A stretch of DNA of 64,000 nt. It comes from Actinoplanes sp. SE50/110 (GTDB taxonomy: Bacteria; Actinomycetota; Actinomycetes; Mycobacteriales; Micromonosporaceae). The notes under the pieces are model-generated. The model was not told the origin of the DNA and did no database searches. It was given only the letters and a program-made list of their open reading frames with translations. This document shows, piece by piece, positions 42,742-49,246 of the stretch (its first letter is position 1; each line of letters begins with the position of its first letter). The position numbers and the translations under genes are program-made. The stretch covers positions 5,365,001-5,429,000 of the forward strand of contig NZ_LT827010.1 in NCBI RefSeq assembly GCF_900119315.1, read 5' to 3'.

Positions 42742-44142
42742 TTACGGGAGTTCGTAGTTCTCGTTGAGCGCGGCTCCCCGGTCCGGCTTGTACTGGTCGA
42801 AACCGCGCGGGTTGCACTGCAGCCCACCGTTGATGCAGTGCGTGGTCAGCGCCGCGAGCGTCGGCCCGTCCCAGGCGTTGAACACGTCGTAGTGGAACGA
42901 GTAGCCTCGCCCGCTCGCGAAGTGCACGTTGGCCATGGTGCCGCTGACCGGCCAGGCCATCTTGAACTCGATCATCGGCACCGCGACCGGGTGGTCGGCC
43001 GGGCAGACGCCGACGATCGGGTACGCCATGTGGCTCTTGTGGTCGGGCGTGTCCAGGTGGATGCCGTCCCAGCAGCTCGGCGCCTGCAGTCGGACGTTGA
43101 GCTGGGATCCGGCGACGCAGTTCGCCGGGATGTCCCAGTTGCGGGTGCTGTCGCCGCACTCGAAGCCTTCGACGGCGCCCGGGTTGTTGCGGAATTCGTC
43201 GATGGTCGCGTTCGGGCTGCCGACGACGTAGCGCAGCCCGGCCGGGAACGGCCGGACGCTGGTGTAGTCGAGCACTCCACTCTTGTAGTAGATGACCTGC
43301 GGGCCGTCCGGCTGCACCGCGGTGTCGCCGTTGAGCAGGGTCGGCATCCAGTAGCCGGTCTTGTCCCCGGGGGTGATGCAGGAGGTGCCTCCGGCCTGCA
43401 GCGACGCCAGTGTGGTGGTGGCGTTGGTGGTCCGGTTGCCCAGGAAGGTGTGTGAGTGCGAGGCCCCGGGCAGGCCGGGGAAGACGATCGGGTCGTCGGT
43501 GAGGTTCGTGCGGCTGACCGAGCAGTTCGCCTGGAATTCGTGGTGGGTGACCGGCGGGTTCTGTGCGGGCGGGGTCGCGGTGGACGGGATCACGCCGGTG
43601 ACCGGCGGGTTCGCCATGATGTAGCCGGGGCCGTCGGTGGCCGGCGGGGTGACCGTCGACGTGCCGTAGACCCGGAATTCGTACAGCGAGTAACCGTATC
43701 CGGTGCCGCGCTGGGTGCCGTACATCCGCACGTACCTGCCGGTGCCGGTGACGCTCAGCGTCTGTGTGCCGCCGGCGCCCGTGGTGGTGCTGTAGATGGT
43801 GGTCCAGGCGGTCCCGTCGGGCGAGGTCTGGATCTGGAAGGACTTGGCGTACGCCGCTTCCCACTGCAGTGTGACCTGCGTGATCGTGGCGGCGGCGCCG
43901 AGGTCGACGCGCAGCCACTGCGGGTCGGCCCACTGGCTGCCCCACCGGGTGTCGGAGCGCCCGTCGACCGCGGCGATGGCGGGGGACTCGCCGTTCTCGA
44001 CGGACGACGCGAGTGCGGGCCGGCCCTGCGACAGCAGGGTGTCGGCGGCGCTGGCCGGCTGGATGACAGCGACCAGCCAGGCGCCGGCCAGCAGCGCGGC
44101 GCTCAGGGGCGCCACGAGCCTGCGGAGCGTTCTTCTGTTCAC
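42742..44142 (-). CDS. Secreted CBM32-DUF1996 protein
   Basis: A 466-residue extracellular protein: signal peptide (about 1-32, ending QPASA), one CBM32/F5-8C domain (about 33-160, ending GYGYSLYEFRVYG), a linker, and a DUF1996 domain (about 195-466; THHEFQANCSVSRTNLTDDP, GASHSHTFLGNRTTN, and YWMPTLLNGDTAVQPDG, WPVSGTMANVHFASG). DUF1996 proteins occur in fungi and actinobacteria and are linked with cell-wall polysaccharides, but no reaction is established. Start GTG 44142 with GGGAG eight bases upstream. Its CBM32 closely resembles those of the large protein downstream. A LacI-type operator copy lies 35 bases upstream. Confidence 0.88.
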   Translation of the reverse strand: MNRRTLRRLVAPLSAALLAGAWLVAVIQPASAADTLLSQGRPALASSVENGESPAIAAVDGRSDTRWGSQWADPQWLRVDLGAAATITQVTLQWEAAYAKSFQIQTSPDGTAWTTIYSTTTGAGGTQTLSVTGTGRYVRMYGTQRGTGYGYSLYEFRVYGTSTVTPPATDGPGYIMANPPVTGVIPSTATPPAQNPPVTHHEFQANCSVSRTNLTDDPIVFPGLPGASHSHTFLGNRTTNATTTLASLQAGGTSCITPGDKTGYWMPTLLNGDTAVQPDGPQVIYYKSGVLDYTSVRPFPAGLRYVVGSPNATIDEFRNNPGAVEGFECGDSTRNWDIPANCVAGSQLNVRLQAPSCWDGIHLDTPDHKSHMAYPIVGVCPADHPVAVPMIEFKMAWPVSGTMANVHFASGRGYSFHYDVFNAWDGPTLAALTTHCINGGLQCNPRGFDQYKPDRGAALNENYELP

Positions 44143-44176
44143 GGGGGATCTCCCAAGGTTGGCGGACGATACGCTT

Positions 44177-44190
44177 GGAGAGCGCTTTCC
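44177..44190. promoter_or_regulatory. LacI-type operator copy 2
   Basis: GGAGAGCGCTTTCC, the exact inverse complement of the copies at 41970 and 44280. It lies 35 bases before the start of the DUF1996 gene, in the region shared with the divergent LacI gene. Confidence 0.8.
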
Positions 44191-44279
44191 AGTTTTCGAG
44201 GGTGTTACCACCGACGTCAATGGTTTTCCGTTCCGGAACGTCGAGTGCCCCTGTTTGTCCCGGTTCGATCAACGGCCGC

Positions 44280-44293
44280 GGAAAGCGCTCTCC
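44280..44293. promoter_or_regulatory. LacI-type operator copy 3
   Basis: GGAAAGCGCTCTCC, 22 bases before the LacI start codon, with a -10-like CTATAAC just after it (44301-44307). Binding here would block the regulator's own promoter. Confidence 0.8.
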
Positions 44294-44314
44294 AGCCGTG
44301 CTATAACTGCGGGC

Positions 44315-45346
44315 ATGCAGAGCCAGCGGCTACCGACGCTCGAGGACGTGGCCCGGGTGGCGGGCGTCTCGAGAGCCACCGTCTCCCGAGTCGTCAACGG
44401 CGTCCGCAACGTCGACCCGCAGTTGCACGAGCTGGTCTGGAGCGCCGTCGAGCAGACCGGCTACGTGCCGAACAGGCTGGCCCGCTCGCTGGTCACCCGG
44501 CGCACCGGCACGATCGCCCTGGTCGTCTCCGACTCGGAGACCCACGACGACGACCCGTTCATGAGCCGCTTCTTCGCCGACCCGTATTTCGGTCGGGTCG
44601 TCGGCGGCCTGATGAGCGTGCTGCGCCCCGCCGCCACCCAGCTGGCCCTGCAGATGGTCGGCGCCGACGGTCACAAACGTCTGGTCGGCGATCTGCGCAA
44701 CGGCCAGGCCGACGGTGCCGTGGTGCTCTCCCTGCCGGCCCGCGACCCGCTGCCCGGCCTGCTCGCCGCGGCCGGCATCCCGGCCGTGCTGATCGGCCGC
44801 CCACCCGAGCCGGTCCCGATCAGCTACGTCGACCTGGCCAACGAGACCGGCGCCGCGCTGGCCGCCGACCGCCTGGTCGCCCGCGGCTGCCGGCAGATCG
44901 CCATGATCTCCGGCCCCGCCGACGTCCCGGCCAGCCAGGACCGCGTCACCGGCTTCCGCCGTGCGATGGCCCGGCACGGCCACGCCTGGGTGCCCACCCT
45001 GGCCGGCAACTTCACCCAGGACAGCGGCGAGCGCGCGATGCGCGCCCTGCTGGCCGCCGAGCCGCACCTGGACGGCGTGTTCGTCGCCAACGACCTGATG
45101 GCCCTGGGCGCCCTGCTCGTCCTGCGGGATGCCGGCAAACGGGTCCCGGAGGACGTCGCGGTCGTCGGCTTCGACGACAGCAGCGCGGCGCTGGCCGCCC
45201 GCCCGGCCCTCACCACGGTCCGCCACCCACTGGAGGACATGGCCGCCGAGGCCGCCAAACTCCTGCTCCTGCGCATCGACGACCCGGCGGCCCGGGTCAG
45301 CTCGGTGATCTACGAGCCGACCCTGGTGCGCCGCCACTCCGCTTAG
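44315..45346 (+). CDS. LacI-family repressor of the local polysaccharide genes
   Basis: A 343-residue LacI protein: HTH LEDVARVAGVSRATVSRVVN, GVRNVDPQLHELVWSAVEQT, the hinge region NRLARSLVTRRT, and a sugar-binding domain ending VPEDVAVVGFDDSSAALAAR. The HTH is of the CebR type, whose members bind GGGAGCGCTCCC-like palindromes in cellulose/glucan regulons. Three copies of a related box lie before this gene, before the DUF1996 gene and before the CBM32/GH16-like gene, so it most likely controls all three and itself. The inducer is probably a short glucan or other oligosaccharide. Confidence 0.92.
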   Translation: MQSQRLPTLEDVARVAGVSRATVSRVVNGVRNVDPQLHELVWSAVEQTGYVPNRLARSLVTRRTGTIALVVSDSETHDDDPFMSRFFADPYFGRVVGGLMSVLRPAATQLALQMVGADGHKRLVGDLRNGQADGAVVLSLPARDPLPGLLAAAGIPAVLIGRPPEPVPISYVDLANETGAALAADRLVARGCRQIAMISGPADVPASQDRVTGFRRAMARHGHAWVPTLAGNFTQDSGERAMRALLAAEPHLDGVFVANDLMALGALLVLRDAGKRVPEDVAVVGFDDSSAALAARPALTTVRHPLEDMAAEAAKLLLLRIDDPAARVSSVIYEPTLVRRHSA

Positions 45347-45705
45347 CTTGGCGTTCAACCTCCAGCGCAGATCCGTGCCCCAGAGGCGGGATCGTAGCGG
45401 TTTTGGCGTTACCTACGCTCGGTGACGGCCCATGGCTCGGGTGGGGCTGGAGCGGGTGCGGACCGCGCGTTGTACGCGGCTACTTATCTACTGGTGGGAC
45501 GACCGCAGCCCGGGCCAGGCTTGGTCGAGGTGACCGGTGGGATCGCTCGTATTGCGGCTGTCCACCGCTGGTTGGTATGACTCACTCATGGCATGCGTCC
45601 TGCCGGTCACCGTGGCGCGGAGAGGCTCAAGAGGGGACTGCCCAGCTCGAAGTAGCGCTGCCCTCCTCGCCGGATTCACCCCCGGTTCGATCGAGGAGAG
45701 CAGGC
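45347..45705. other. Non-coding left flank of the IS110 element, possible bridge-RNA region
   Basis: About 360 bases with no gene. A perfect 9-base inverted repeat (GGTGACCGG at 45529-45537 and CCGGTCACC at 45603-45611) encloses a second one (CGGTGG at 45535-45540 and CCACCG at 45562-45567), and CCGCG/CGCGG flank TTGTA-containing sequence near 45463-45479. IS110-group elements are known to encode a structured bridge RNA in the non-coding end upstream of the recombinase. The exact left end of the element is not visible. Confidence 0.4.
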
Positions 45706-46883
45706 ATGGGACAGGTCATCATCGGTATGGACCCGCACAAGCGGTCCGCGACCATCGAGATCATCAACGACCGGGAGAAGATTCTCGCGCAAGGCCGGTT
45801 CGGCACCGACCGCGACGGATACCAGACGATGCTCAAGCTCGGCCGGCAGCACAAGGACCGGGTCTGGGCAGTCGAGGGCTGCAACGGCATCGGCAAACAC
45901 CTCGCCCAGCGCTTGGTCGCCGACGGCGAAACCGTCCTCGATGTCCCGGCAAAGTTGTCCGCCCGTGCCCGGGTGTTCGACACCGGCCAGGGACGCAAAA
46001 CCGACCCGGCCGACGCCCACCACATCGCGGTCGCCGCCCTGCGCAGCAAGGGCTTGCGGCAAGTGGCCGCCGACGACGCGACGGTGGCGCTGCGGCTGCT
46101 GGTCGACCGCCGCGACGAACTGGGCCGCGCCCACACCGATCTGCTCAACCGGATCCACAAACTGCTGCTCGAACTACTGCCCGGCGGCGCCAAGAAGTAT
46201 CTGTCCGCTACCCAGGCCCGTGAACTGCTCGCCACGATCCGCCCGCGTGACCTGGTCGGCCGGACCCGGCGCCGGCTCGCCTCCGAGCTGATCAGCGAAC
46301 TCGTCCAGGTCGACAAGAAGACCAAAGCGGCCGACAAGGAACTGCGTGAGCTTGTCGAGGCGACCGGCAGCAGCCTGCAGGACCTGCACGGCATCGGCCC
46401 GTCCGGCGCAGCCCGGCTCATCGGCGACGTCGCCGACATCAACCGCTTCGCCAGCCGCGGGCACTTCGCATCCTGGAACGGCACCGCACCGATCGACGCC
46501 TCCTCCGGCGACCAGACTCGGCACCGGCTGTCCCGAGCCGGGAACCGGCGCATCAACCGCACCCTGCACATCATGGCCGTCGTCCAGCTGCGCAACGACA
46601 CCGAAGGCCGCGCCTACTACCGGCGCAAACTCGCCGCCGGTAAAACCCCGATGGAAGCCATGCGCGCGCTCAAACGACGACTGTCCGACGTCGTCTACCA
46701 GCAGATGGTCAACGACGCCAAAACCGTCGAGACGGGCCCGGGAGGACACGCGGGGGCGACTCTGAAATCCAGCGCGGCCGATCCAATCCCCATGATCGAC
46801 ACTTCGGACAAGTCACTTCCCGGACCCGCCGAACCCCAGCCTAGAACACCACTTCCGACCACCTCTTGACACAGAGGGGTGCC
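45630..46883 (+). mobile_element. IS110-family insertion sequence (ends approximate)
   Basis: Contains the DEDD-type transposase at 45706-46869. AGAGGGG followed shortly by TGCC occurs on both sides (45630-45636 and 46873-46879), a possible trace of the recombination core. IS110 elements lack clear terminal inverted repeats, and the true left end may lie further upstream within 45347-45630, so these bounds are a guess. The LacI gene on the left is intact. Confidence 0.6.
45706..46869 (+). CDS. IS110-family transposase (DEDD/serine recombinase)
   Basis: A 387-residue recombinase from ATG 45706. The N-terminal RuvC-like domain carries the acidic residues: GMDPHKRSATIEI, WAVEGCNGIGKHLA and GRKTDPADAHHIAV. 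After a coiled-coil (LVDRRDELGRAHTDLLN and onward) comes the Tnp_20 domain with LHGIGPSGAARLIGDV, the putative catalytic serine in IDASSGDQTRHRLSRAGN and RRINRTLHIMA. Both halves are intact, so the element could be active. The frame is open far upstream but that is read-through of non-coding sequence and earlier shadows. A short low-complexity tail (SLPGPAEPQPRTPLPT) ends the protein. Confidence 0.93.
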   Translation: MGQVIIGMDPHKRSATIEIINDREKILAQGRFGTDRDGYQTMLKLGRQHKDRVWAVEGCNGIGKHLAQRLVADGETVLDVPAKLSARARVFDTGQGRKTDPADAHHIAVAALRSKGLRQVAADDATVALRLLVDRRDELGRAHTDLLNRIHKLLLELLPGGAKKYLSATQARELLATIRPRDLVGRTRRRLASELISELVQVDKKTKAADKELRELVEATGSSLQDLHGIGPSGAARLIGDVADINRFASRGHFASWNGTAPIDASSGDQTRHRLSRAGNRRINRTLHIMAVVQLRNDTEGRAYYRRKLAAGKTPMEAMRALKRRLSDVVYQQMVNDAKTVETGPGGHAGATLKSSAADPIPMIDTSDKSLPGPAEPQPRTPLPTTS

Positions 46884-47065
46884 ATGAGAGTGCGCCGTGC
46901 CGAGATTTGCTCAAGGAAGAGCGTTGAACGAGCGACTGCTTTCGACGAAAGTTGGTAAACGCCGCAGACTATACGACGTCTCGCTCCGAGGTCGATGCAA
47001 CTCGCCGGAAGTTGCACTACGAAATACGGGCGTAGAAGTCCCCTGCCGCATACATTGACGTAGAG

Positions 47066-48413: not shown

Positions 48414-49246
48414 GTGAGGATCAGTCTCGTTCCGGTCTTCGTGAGCAAGGCCTGGGTCGTCGATGACGAGTTGTGGAAGCTGATCGAGCCGGTGCTGCCT
48501 GCTTGGCCAGCGAGGGCGCCGGGACCGCGGCCGGTGCCGGACCGGCTGTGCTTGCAGGGCATCCTGTTCGTCCTGCACACCGGGATCGGCTGGGAGGACC
48601 TGCCGCAGGAGCTCGGGTTCGGCTCGGGGATGACCTGCTGGCGCAGGCTGCAGCGGTGGACCGAGGCAGGCGTGTTCGACCAGGTCCACCAGATACTGCT
48701 GGACAAGCTGAACGCGGCGAACCGGATCGACTGGTCGAGAGCGGCGATTGACGCCAGTCACATCGACGCTAAAAAGGGGGTGCCGGGACAGGCCCGTCGC
48801 CGGTCAACCGGGGCAAGCCCGGCTCCAAGCACCACCTGATCTGCGACGGCAACGGCACCCCGATCTACGTGCTGACCAGCGGCGCGAACGTACCTGACAT
48901 CAAACGTGCCCTGGATCTGCTCGACTGCTACCCGCCGATCGCCGGCAGGCTGGGCCGGCCTCGGCGCCGGTTCGCGGCGCTGCTGGCTGACAAGGCCTAC
49001 AGCAGTGCGGCGTTCCGCCAGGCCTGCCGTGAACGTGGCACCGAACCCCTCATCCCCAAACCGAAGACCACCGGGATCAAGGGCCTCGGCAAGCTCCGGT
49101 ACGTCGTCGAGCAGACCTTCGCTCTGCTGCATCAGTTCCGCCGATTGGCTGTTCGCTGGGAGCGCCGCCTCGACATCCACGACGGCTTCGTCAGCCTTGC
49201 CTGCGTCCTGATCTGCTGGCGCAGATTGATCAATTGGACCGATTAG
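48414..49246 (+). CDS. IS5-family transposase made by -1 frameshifting
   Basis: Frame A runs 48414-48839 and frame B continues to 49246. Frame A gives the N-terminal domain (VVDDELWKLIEPVLPAWPAR, GIGWEDLPQELGFGSGMTCW) and the first catalytic Asp in AAIDASHIDAKKG. Frame B gives NRGKPGSKHHLICDGNGTP, the second Asp in ALLADKAYSSAAFRQ, and the catalytic Glu in RYVVEQTFALLHQFRRL, so a fused product has the DDE triad. At the join is the slippery heptamer A AAG GGG (48773-48779), the standard form for -1 slippage of both tRNAs; the shift from A to B is exactly -1. This is as in other IS5-family members of this group. The element looks intact. Confidence 0.9.
48773..48779 (+). promoter_or_regulatory. 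Programmed -1 frameshift site A_AAG_GGG
   Basis: In the zero frame the codons are AAG and GGG preceded by A; slipping back one base keeps pairing and moves the ribosome into the frame that encodes the rest of the transposase. Confidence 0.8.

What the first reader, a model, noticed from the sequence alone, without database searches (positions are those of the whole stretch)
45347..45705. Candidate bridge-RNA region of an intact IS110 element
IS110-group recombinases use a structured RNA from the element's own non-coding end to pair donor and target DNA. The 360 bases before this intact transposase contain nested inverted repeats (GGTGACCGG/CCGGTCACC around CGGTGG/CCACCG) and no gene. If confirmed, it adds an actinobacterial high-GC example with its own guide loops.
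Basis: partly seen in the sequence, partly recalled or inferred. Interest (0 to 1): 0.6.

Follow-up and report, generated by a model that had tools for sequence, protein, structure and literature searches.

The report
IS110 bridge RNA in Actinoplanes relatives
The stretch before this jumping gene does encode the kind of structured guide RNA that tells the element where to insert; comparison of more than 60 insertions shows its guide letters changing together with the insertion sites, so it is a solid new example of a mechanism already described in 2024.

Summary
The call is right in kind; the coordinates need trimming. A second copy elsewhere in the same genome, 100% identical over 1,404 bp, and about 40 relatives fix the element at 45480-46883, with a 225-nt non-coding left end (45481-45705) before an intact 387-aa IS110 transposase. 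Bases 45347-45480 are host DNA: the end of a dispersed ~130-bp repeat that contains the left half of the target. The nested inverted repeat alone is no better than chance. The comparative evidence is decisive. Across 33 insertions, of all positions in the left end, the 9-mer at 45550-45558 best matches each insertion's own left flank (z 8.0), and the segment ending at 45589 best matches the reverse complement of the right flank (z 6.9). After removing close relatives, none of 20,000 permutations equals either match. Donor guides also change together with the element's ends. Stems carry compensatory changes, and the layout is that of IS621. A relative with 34 copies and 13 empty sites fixes the junction to the base. 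It is a new member of the IS110 bridge-RNA family. One possible deviation: donor and target share a single C at the crossover, not IS621's CT. Transcription and activity are untested.

The parts
45480..46883 (+). IS110-family element, 1,404 bp counting the C at 45480 that is shared at the crossover
   Evidence: Second copy G000:C1:6636655-6638085 is 100% identical over this span; ends agree with about 40 relatives and with empty sites
45347..45480 (+). Host DNA outside the element: dispersed ~130-bp repeat starting right after the lacI stop codon and ending in the left half of the target
   Evidence: Homologous repeats in many genus genomes, ending at the insertion point
45461..45480 (+). Left target flank GACCGCGCGTTGTACGCGGC; shared with the other copy except 45474 (A here, C there)
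45481..45705 (+). Non-coding left end (LE), 225 nt, holding the bridge RNA
   Evidence: lengths in relatives mixed modulo 3, so not coding
45500..45527 (+). 5' stem-loop of the bridge RNA
   Evidence: RNAalifold consensus; C-G to G-C and A-U to U-A changes
45529..45611 (+). Target-binding stem-loop; lower stem GGTGACCGG (45529-45537) with CCGGTCACC (45603-45611), upper stem 45544-45546 with 45595-45597
   Evidence: the L087-L090 group replaces the lower stem by GACGTCCGGG/CCCGGGCGTC
45550..45558 (+). Left target guide (LTG) TATTGCGGC
   Evidence: Best of all LE positions for matching the left flank, 7.65 of 9, z 8.0; 0 of 20,000 permutations after removing close relatives
45560..45581 (+). Apical hairpin of the target-binding stem-loop
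   Evidence: C-G to U-A change in 8 sequences
45584..45589 (+). Right target guide (RTG) ACTCAT, reverse complement of ATGAGT; RT is ATGAGA
   Evidence: Best of all LE positions for matching the reverse complement of the right flank, z 6.9; 0 of 20,000 permutations
45590..45592 (+). GGC after the RTG, complementary to the donor end GCC; probable handshake-guide position
   Evidence: Invariant in 26 sequences; analogy with IS621; inference
45614..45671 (+). Donor-binding stem-loop; stem 45614-45626 with 45660-45671
45630..45642 (+). Left donor guide AGAGGGGacTGCC, matching the right end AGAGGGG-TGCC
   Evidence: G to A change in both guide and end in L087-L090
45650..45655 (+). Right donor guide AAGTAG, reverse complement of CTACTT at the left end
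   Evidence: L067/L077 change both sides (CTACCT with AGGTAG)
45706..46869 (+). IS110 recombinase, 387 aa; residues aligned to the IS621 DEDD tetrad and catalytic serine are present
46866..46871 (+). TTGACA, likely -35 box of the promoter formed when the ends join; overlaps the transposase stop codon
   Evidence: TTGAC conserved at the right end of nearly all relatives; function inferred from IS621
46870..46883 (+). Non-coding right end (RE), 14 bp, CACAGAGGGGTGCC
   Evidence: tandem junction GAGGGGTGCC|TACTTA in L050/L091
46884..46891 (+). Right target flank ATGAGAGT, shared with the other copy

Best explanation
The left end (45481-45705) encodes an IS110-type bridge RNA. In the excised circle, the right end (TTGACA ... 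GGTGCC) abuts the left end (TACTTA ...) and a promoter forms that transcribes the RNA (inferred). The RNA folds into a 5' stem-loop, a target-binding loop and a donor-binding loop (supported by comparison). [quoted passage not shown] In the donor loop, AGAGGGG..TGCC and AAGTAG pair with the joined element ends (pairing supported by covariation). The recombinase then cuts and exchanges strands beside a shared C (mechanism inferred from IS621), inserting the circle without target duplication (shown by empty sites). The targets are dispersed intergenic repeats, and guide changes among relatives redirect the element to other repeats.
For: Ends: an identical second copy and about 40 relatives; empty sites. 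Target guides: an unbiased scan of all LE positions finds the two loop segments, with the strand senses expected for LTG and RTG (z 8.0 and 6.9; the wrong-sense controls peak at z 5.0 and 4.5 with poor match scores); 21 clusters, 0 of 20,000 permutations for each. Donor guides covary with the ends. Structure: compensatory changes and 97.6% paired cells, against 40-56% when partners are slid. A covariance model finds matches in 36 of 68 genus genomes and recovers a held-out divergent group. Guides differ between copies 4 to 7 times more than stems. In one genome 34 insertions all lie at GGCCCGCGC^GGGAGC, with guides GGCCCGCGC and rc GGGAGA. Recombinase family.
Against: No RNA was seen; expression is inferred. 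Single-sequence folding energy is not unusual. In the shuffle control the count of pairs changed on both sides is only weakly above chance (3 against 1.1, 27 of 500), because the scaffold is highly conserved. This copy's own LTG pairs with its left flank by only five Watson-Crick pairs plus one wobble (two wobbles for the other copy). Permutations do not fully remove shared ancestry. No Rfam family matched the stretch.
Confidence: 0.95

Rival explanations
1. The left end is a structured 5' leader or attenuator that regulates transposase expression, not a guide RNA.
For: It lies directly upstream of the gene and can fold.
Against: A leader does not explain why two short loop segments match each copy's own genomic flanks, in opposite strand senses, or why two others match the element's ends.
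Confidence: 0.03
2. The guide-flank match is homology: what is called the guide is copied flank, or the insertion repeats and the left end share ancestry.
For: The target sequences are repeats and similar in many copies.
Against: Only the 6 to 9 bases of the loops match, not the neighbouring bases; the two guides match opposite strands; guide changes appear in an otherwise conserved scaffold.
Confidence: 0.02
3. The region is protein-coding: the transposase frame is open upstream through it (ORF 43456-46869).
For: The frame is open in this window.
Against: Lengths of the left end in relatives are mixed modulo 3 (14, 9 and 10 of 33) and an open frame is expected at high G+C.
Confidence: 0.005

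Closest known systems
IS621 bridge RNA (IS110 group, E. coli; PMC11208160 and PMC11208158, 2024)
   Same: Long left end upstream of the recombinase; 5' stem-loop, then target loop, then donor loop; left guides in sense with the top strand and right guides reverse complementary; insertion into repeats; -35 box in RE
   Different: IS621 has a CT core shared by donor and target; here only one C is shared (target GC^A or GC^G, donor CC^T). Different scaffold sequence, not found by Rfam; RE only 14 bp with the -35 overlapping the stop codon
ISEc21 seekRNA and its natural variant ISMch6 (PMC11187229, 2024)
   Same: Upstream non-coding region with bottom-strand then top-strand target matches; a relative with altered guide bases sits in an altered target
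   Different: Here 14 LTG and 7 RTG variants are seen in 23 related left ends; the RNA itself was not isolated
REP-targeting IS elements such as ISPpu9, ISPpu10 and ISPa11 (PMC1525189, 2006)
   Same: Insertion at a fixed point in a dispersed intergenic repeat
   Different: Actinobacterial repeats not named in the papers read here; different elements

Membership tests
IS110 family | DEDD RuvC-like plus Transposase_20 (serine) recombinase | tested here: met
   PF01548 and PF02371 above cut-off; NF033542 182.7 bits against a cut-off of 140; DEDD residues and the RLSRAG serine align with IS621
IS110 family | Insertion without target duplication, no long terminal inverted repeats, circular RE-LE junction | tested here: met
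   Empty sites join exactly at the flanks; tandem RE-LE junction in L050/L091. A circle itself was not observed
IS110 group (as opposed to IS1111) | Long non-coding end upstream of the recombinase | tested here: met
   LE 225 nt, RE 14 nt
IS110 bridge RNA | Two loops whose guides pair with target and donor, left with bottom strand and right with top strand | tested here: met
IS110 bridge RNA | 5' stem-loop followed by target and donor stem-loops, with covariation | tested here: met
   scaffold well conserved, so covariation is modest
IS110 bridge RNA | CT core dinucleotide shared by donor and target (as in IS621) | tested here: not met
   Only one C is shared in the insertions read. PMC11208158 calls the first core base less conserved and other cores work, so this is a feature of IS621 and close orthologues rather than of the whole family
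IS110 bridge RNA | RNA expressed and bound by the recombinase | not testable with these tools
   Needs small-RNA sequencing or pull-down
Rfam families | Match to a curated RNA family over 45481-45705 | tested here: not met
   No match at E up to 1 in that stretch

The most novel reading that the evidence does not exclude
This clade recombines across a single shared base (C), with handshake guides placed directly beside it: GGC after the RTG matches the donor GCC, and GCG after the RDG matches the target end. Target and donor loops would then be almost independent of each other, freer than IS621, which prefers a shared CT.
Probability: 0.35. Interest if true: 0.5.

Novelty: new member of a known kind. 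Interest (0 to 1): 0.36.

Why it matters
It gives a high-GC actinobacterial bridge-RNA system with exact ends, all four guides located, empty sites, and a series of naturally redirected relatives in one genus. That is useful for testing how many pairs and how much shared core an IS110 recombinase needs, and possibly as a tool in actinomycetes. It does not change the known mechanism.

Tried and rejected
Using the inverted repeat or folding energy as proof: rejected, both at chance level. Taking the identical span of the two own-genome copies (45461-46891) as the element: rejected, because relatives and empty sites show that its outer 19 left and 8 right bases are shared target. Coding left end: rejected. 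Reading the left-flank repeat as integron-like gene cassettes: considered because it starts at stop codons and ends near ATG, but no clear attC boxes or long-hairpin fold was found and upstream genes look ordinary. Rfam on the repeat: no match. An orthologous empty site for this locus itself was not found: relatives keep lacI but mostly lack the repeat. A relaxed search for unoccupied repeats in G038 used wrong spacing and found nothing, so no inference is drawn. Early searches used a wrong frame.

Full report
What is there. The ORF 45706-46869 (387 aa) is an IS110-family recombinase: PF01548 and PF02371 both above cut-off, NCBIfam NF033542 'IS110 family RNA-guided transposase' at 182.7 bits against a cut-off of 140, and the residues of the IS621 DEDD tetrad and catalytic serine are present in the alignment with IS621 chain 8wt6. 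The genome (9.24 Mb, one contig) holds a second copy on the other strand at 6636655-6638085, identical over window 45461-46891 except one base, 45474. Comparison with about 40 relatives from the same genus and from Micromonospora, Planosporangium, Nocardioides and Serinicoccus shows that similarity starts at (C)TACTTA and ends at GGTGCC. The element is therefore 45480-46883, and over that span the two own-genome copies are 100% identical. The 19 bases before it and 8 bases after it that the two copies also share are common target sequence, which is itself a sign of sequence-specific insertion.

Bases 45347-45480 do not belong to the element. They begin directly after the lacI stop codon (45344-45346) and are a ~130-bp repeat found in many genomes of the genus, mostly ending ...GTTGTnTGCGGC followed by motifs such as ATGAGAGTG, ATGTGAGTG, AGATCCGG. 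Unoccupied copies such as L108 (GCGCGTTGTCTGCGGCATGAGAGCG) are empty versions of the target and put the junction after the final C.

Not from folding energy. A 9-bp inverted pair in this stretch is expected in about a fifth of random sequences of like composition, and the folding energy is unremarkable. The case rests on comparison.

Target guides. I took the left ends of 33 insertions with their own flanks and scanned every alignment position for a match to the left flank (sense) and to the right flank (reverse complement), with permutation of flanks among copies. The best place for the left flank, by score and by z, is the 9-mer ending at window 45558 (TATTGCGGC; 7.65 of 9, z 8.0). For the right flank it is the 7-mer ending at 45589 (CACTCAT; 5.42 of 7, z 6.9). 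Wrong-sense controls peak at z 5.0 and 4.5 with low match scores; some background z of 4-5 is expected from relatedness. After reducing to 21 clusters at 93% identity, no permutation of 20,000 equals the observed match for either guide. Matches extend over the last 9 positions of the left flank (15 or more of 21 at each) and the first 5 of the right (17 or more of 21), and drop just outside. The senses and the order (left guide first) are those of the IS110 group.

Many copies in one genome. Genome G038 carries 34 matches to the covariance model. All 34 sit at GGCCCGCGC^GGGAGC, and their guides read GGCCCGCGC and, in reverse complement, GGGAGA. Thirteen unoccupied sites GGCCCGCG[C/T]GGGAGCATGCG were found, with none for the reversed control pattern. 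Joining the flanks of occupied copies gives exactly the unoccupied sequence, so insertion is precise and without duplication.

Donor guides. The donor is the joined end pair ...TTGACACAGAGGGGTGCC|TACTTA..., seen as a tandem junction in L050/L091. The donor arm holds AGAGGGGacTGCC and AAGTAG, which match the right end and the reverse complement of the left end. They change together: L067 and L077 have CTACCT with AGGTAG; L087-L090 have GAGAGGAGCC with AGAGAGG. These are only two independent changes, so this part is weaker than the target part.

Structure. RNAalifold on 26 left ends gives a 5' stem-loop (45500-45527), a target stem-loop (45529-45611) with an apical hairpin, and a donor stem-loop (45614-45671); 7 of 37 pairs show compensatory changes. 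On 23 sequences the structure is 97.6% paired, against 40-56% with slid partners. The covariation score exceeds all 500 shuffles, though the number of pairs with double changes does so only weakly. A divergent group left out of the model (L087-L090) has a replaced lower stem, GACGTCCGGG/CCCGGGCGTC, and is found at 110 bits. Guide positions differ between sequences in 35-58% of comparisons, stems in 8%. Left-end lengths are mixed modulo 3, excluding a coding role.

The crossover. In IS621 donor and target share a CT core, the top strand is cut just after it, and 'handshake' guide bases pair with the incoming strand. Here the insertions read show target ...C^A or C^G and donor ...C^T; the base before the shared C also differs (G in the target, C in the donor). 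The GGC that follows the RTG matches the donor GCC, and the GCG that follows the RDG matches the target end. I read this as a one-base core with handshake bases beside it. This is an inference from sequence, and PMC11208158 notes that the first base of the IS621 core is already the less conserved one, so the difference may be small.

This copy. The window's own LTG pairs with its left flank by five Watson-Crick pairs and one wobble (two for the other copy), weaker than in most relatives; its RTG pairs with five bases of the right flank plus the shared C. It is therefore probably functional, but it may sit in a second-best site.

What is shown and what is inferred. Shown: element ends, identical second copy, precise insertion, guide-flank covariation, conserved structure. 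Inferred: transcription, promoter at the joined ends, binding by the recombinase, strand-exchange details. Literature: no paper on this element was found in the held library; the family and mechanism are those of PMC11208160, PMC11208158 and PMC11187229, and insertion into dispersed repeats is known (PMC1525189).

Noticed in passing
45347-45480 and L108-L125, L144-L172: A ~130-bp repeat family dispersed over the genus (GCTTGCCGTTYAACCTCC ... GCGTTGTCTGCGGC) often starts right after a gene's stop codon and ends at the IS110 target point; no Rfam match and no single long hairpin. Nature unknown.
   Followed up: partly
L208-L249 (genome G038): One related genome has 34 copies of this IS inserted in the same dispersed repeat (GGCCAGATCGCC ... 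GGCCCGCGC^GGGAGCATGCG ... GCGGACCTGCG); at least 13 copies of the repeat are still empty.
   Followed up: partly
L050 / L091 around 1371-1640: Two copies or remnants of the element head to tail, joined GAGGGGTGCC|TACTTA, the expected RE-LE junction; transposase frames are broken.
   Followed up: no
46866-46871: The conserved TTGACA (-35) at the right end overlaps the transposase stop codon, leaving a right end of only 14 bp.
   Followed up: no
48414-49246: Two adjacent ORFs in different frames look like a frame-shifted IS5-like transposase (by eye only; not searched).
   Followed up: no
46728-46818 (-): Sub-threshold Rfam match to Mycobacterium sRNA ncrMT1302 (31.4 bits, gathering 45) antisense to the end of the transposase gene.
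   Followed up: no
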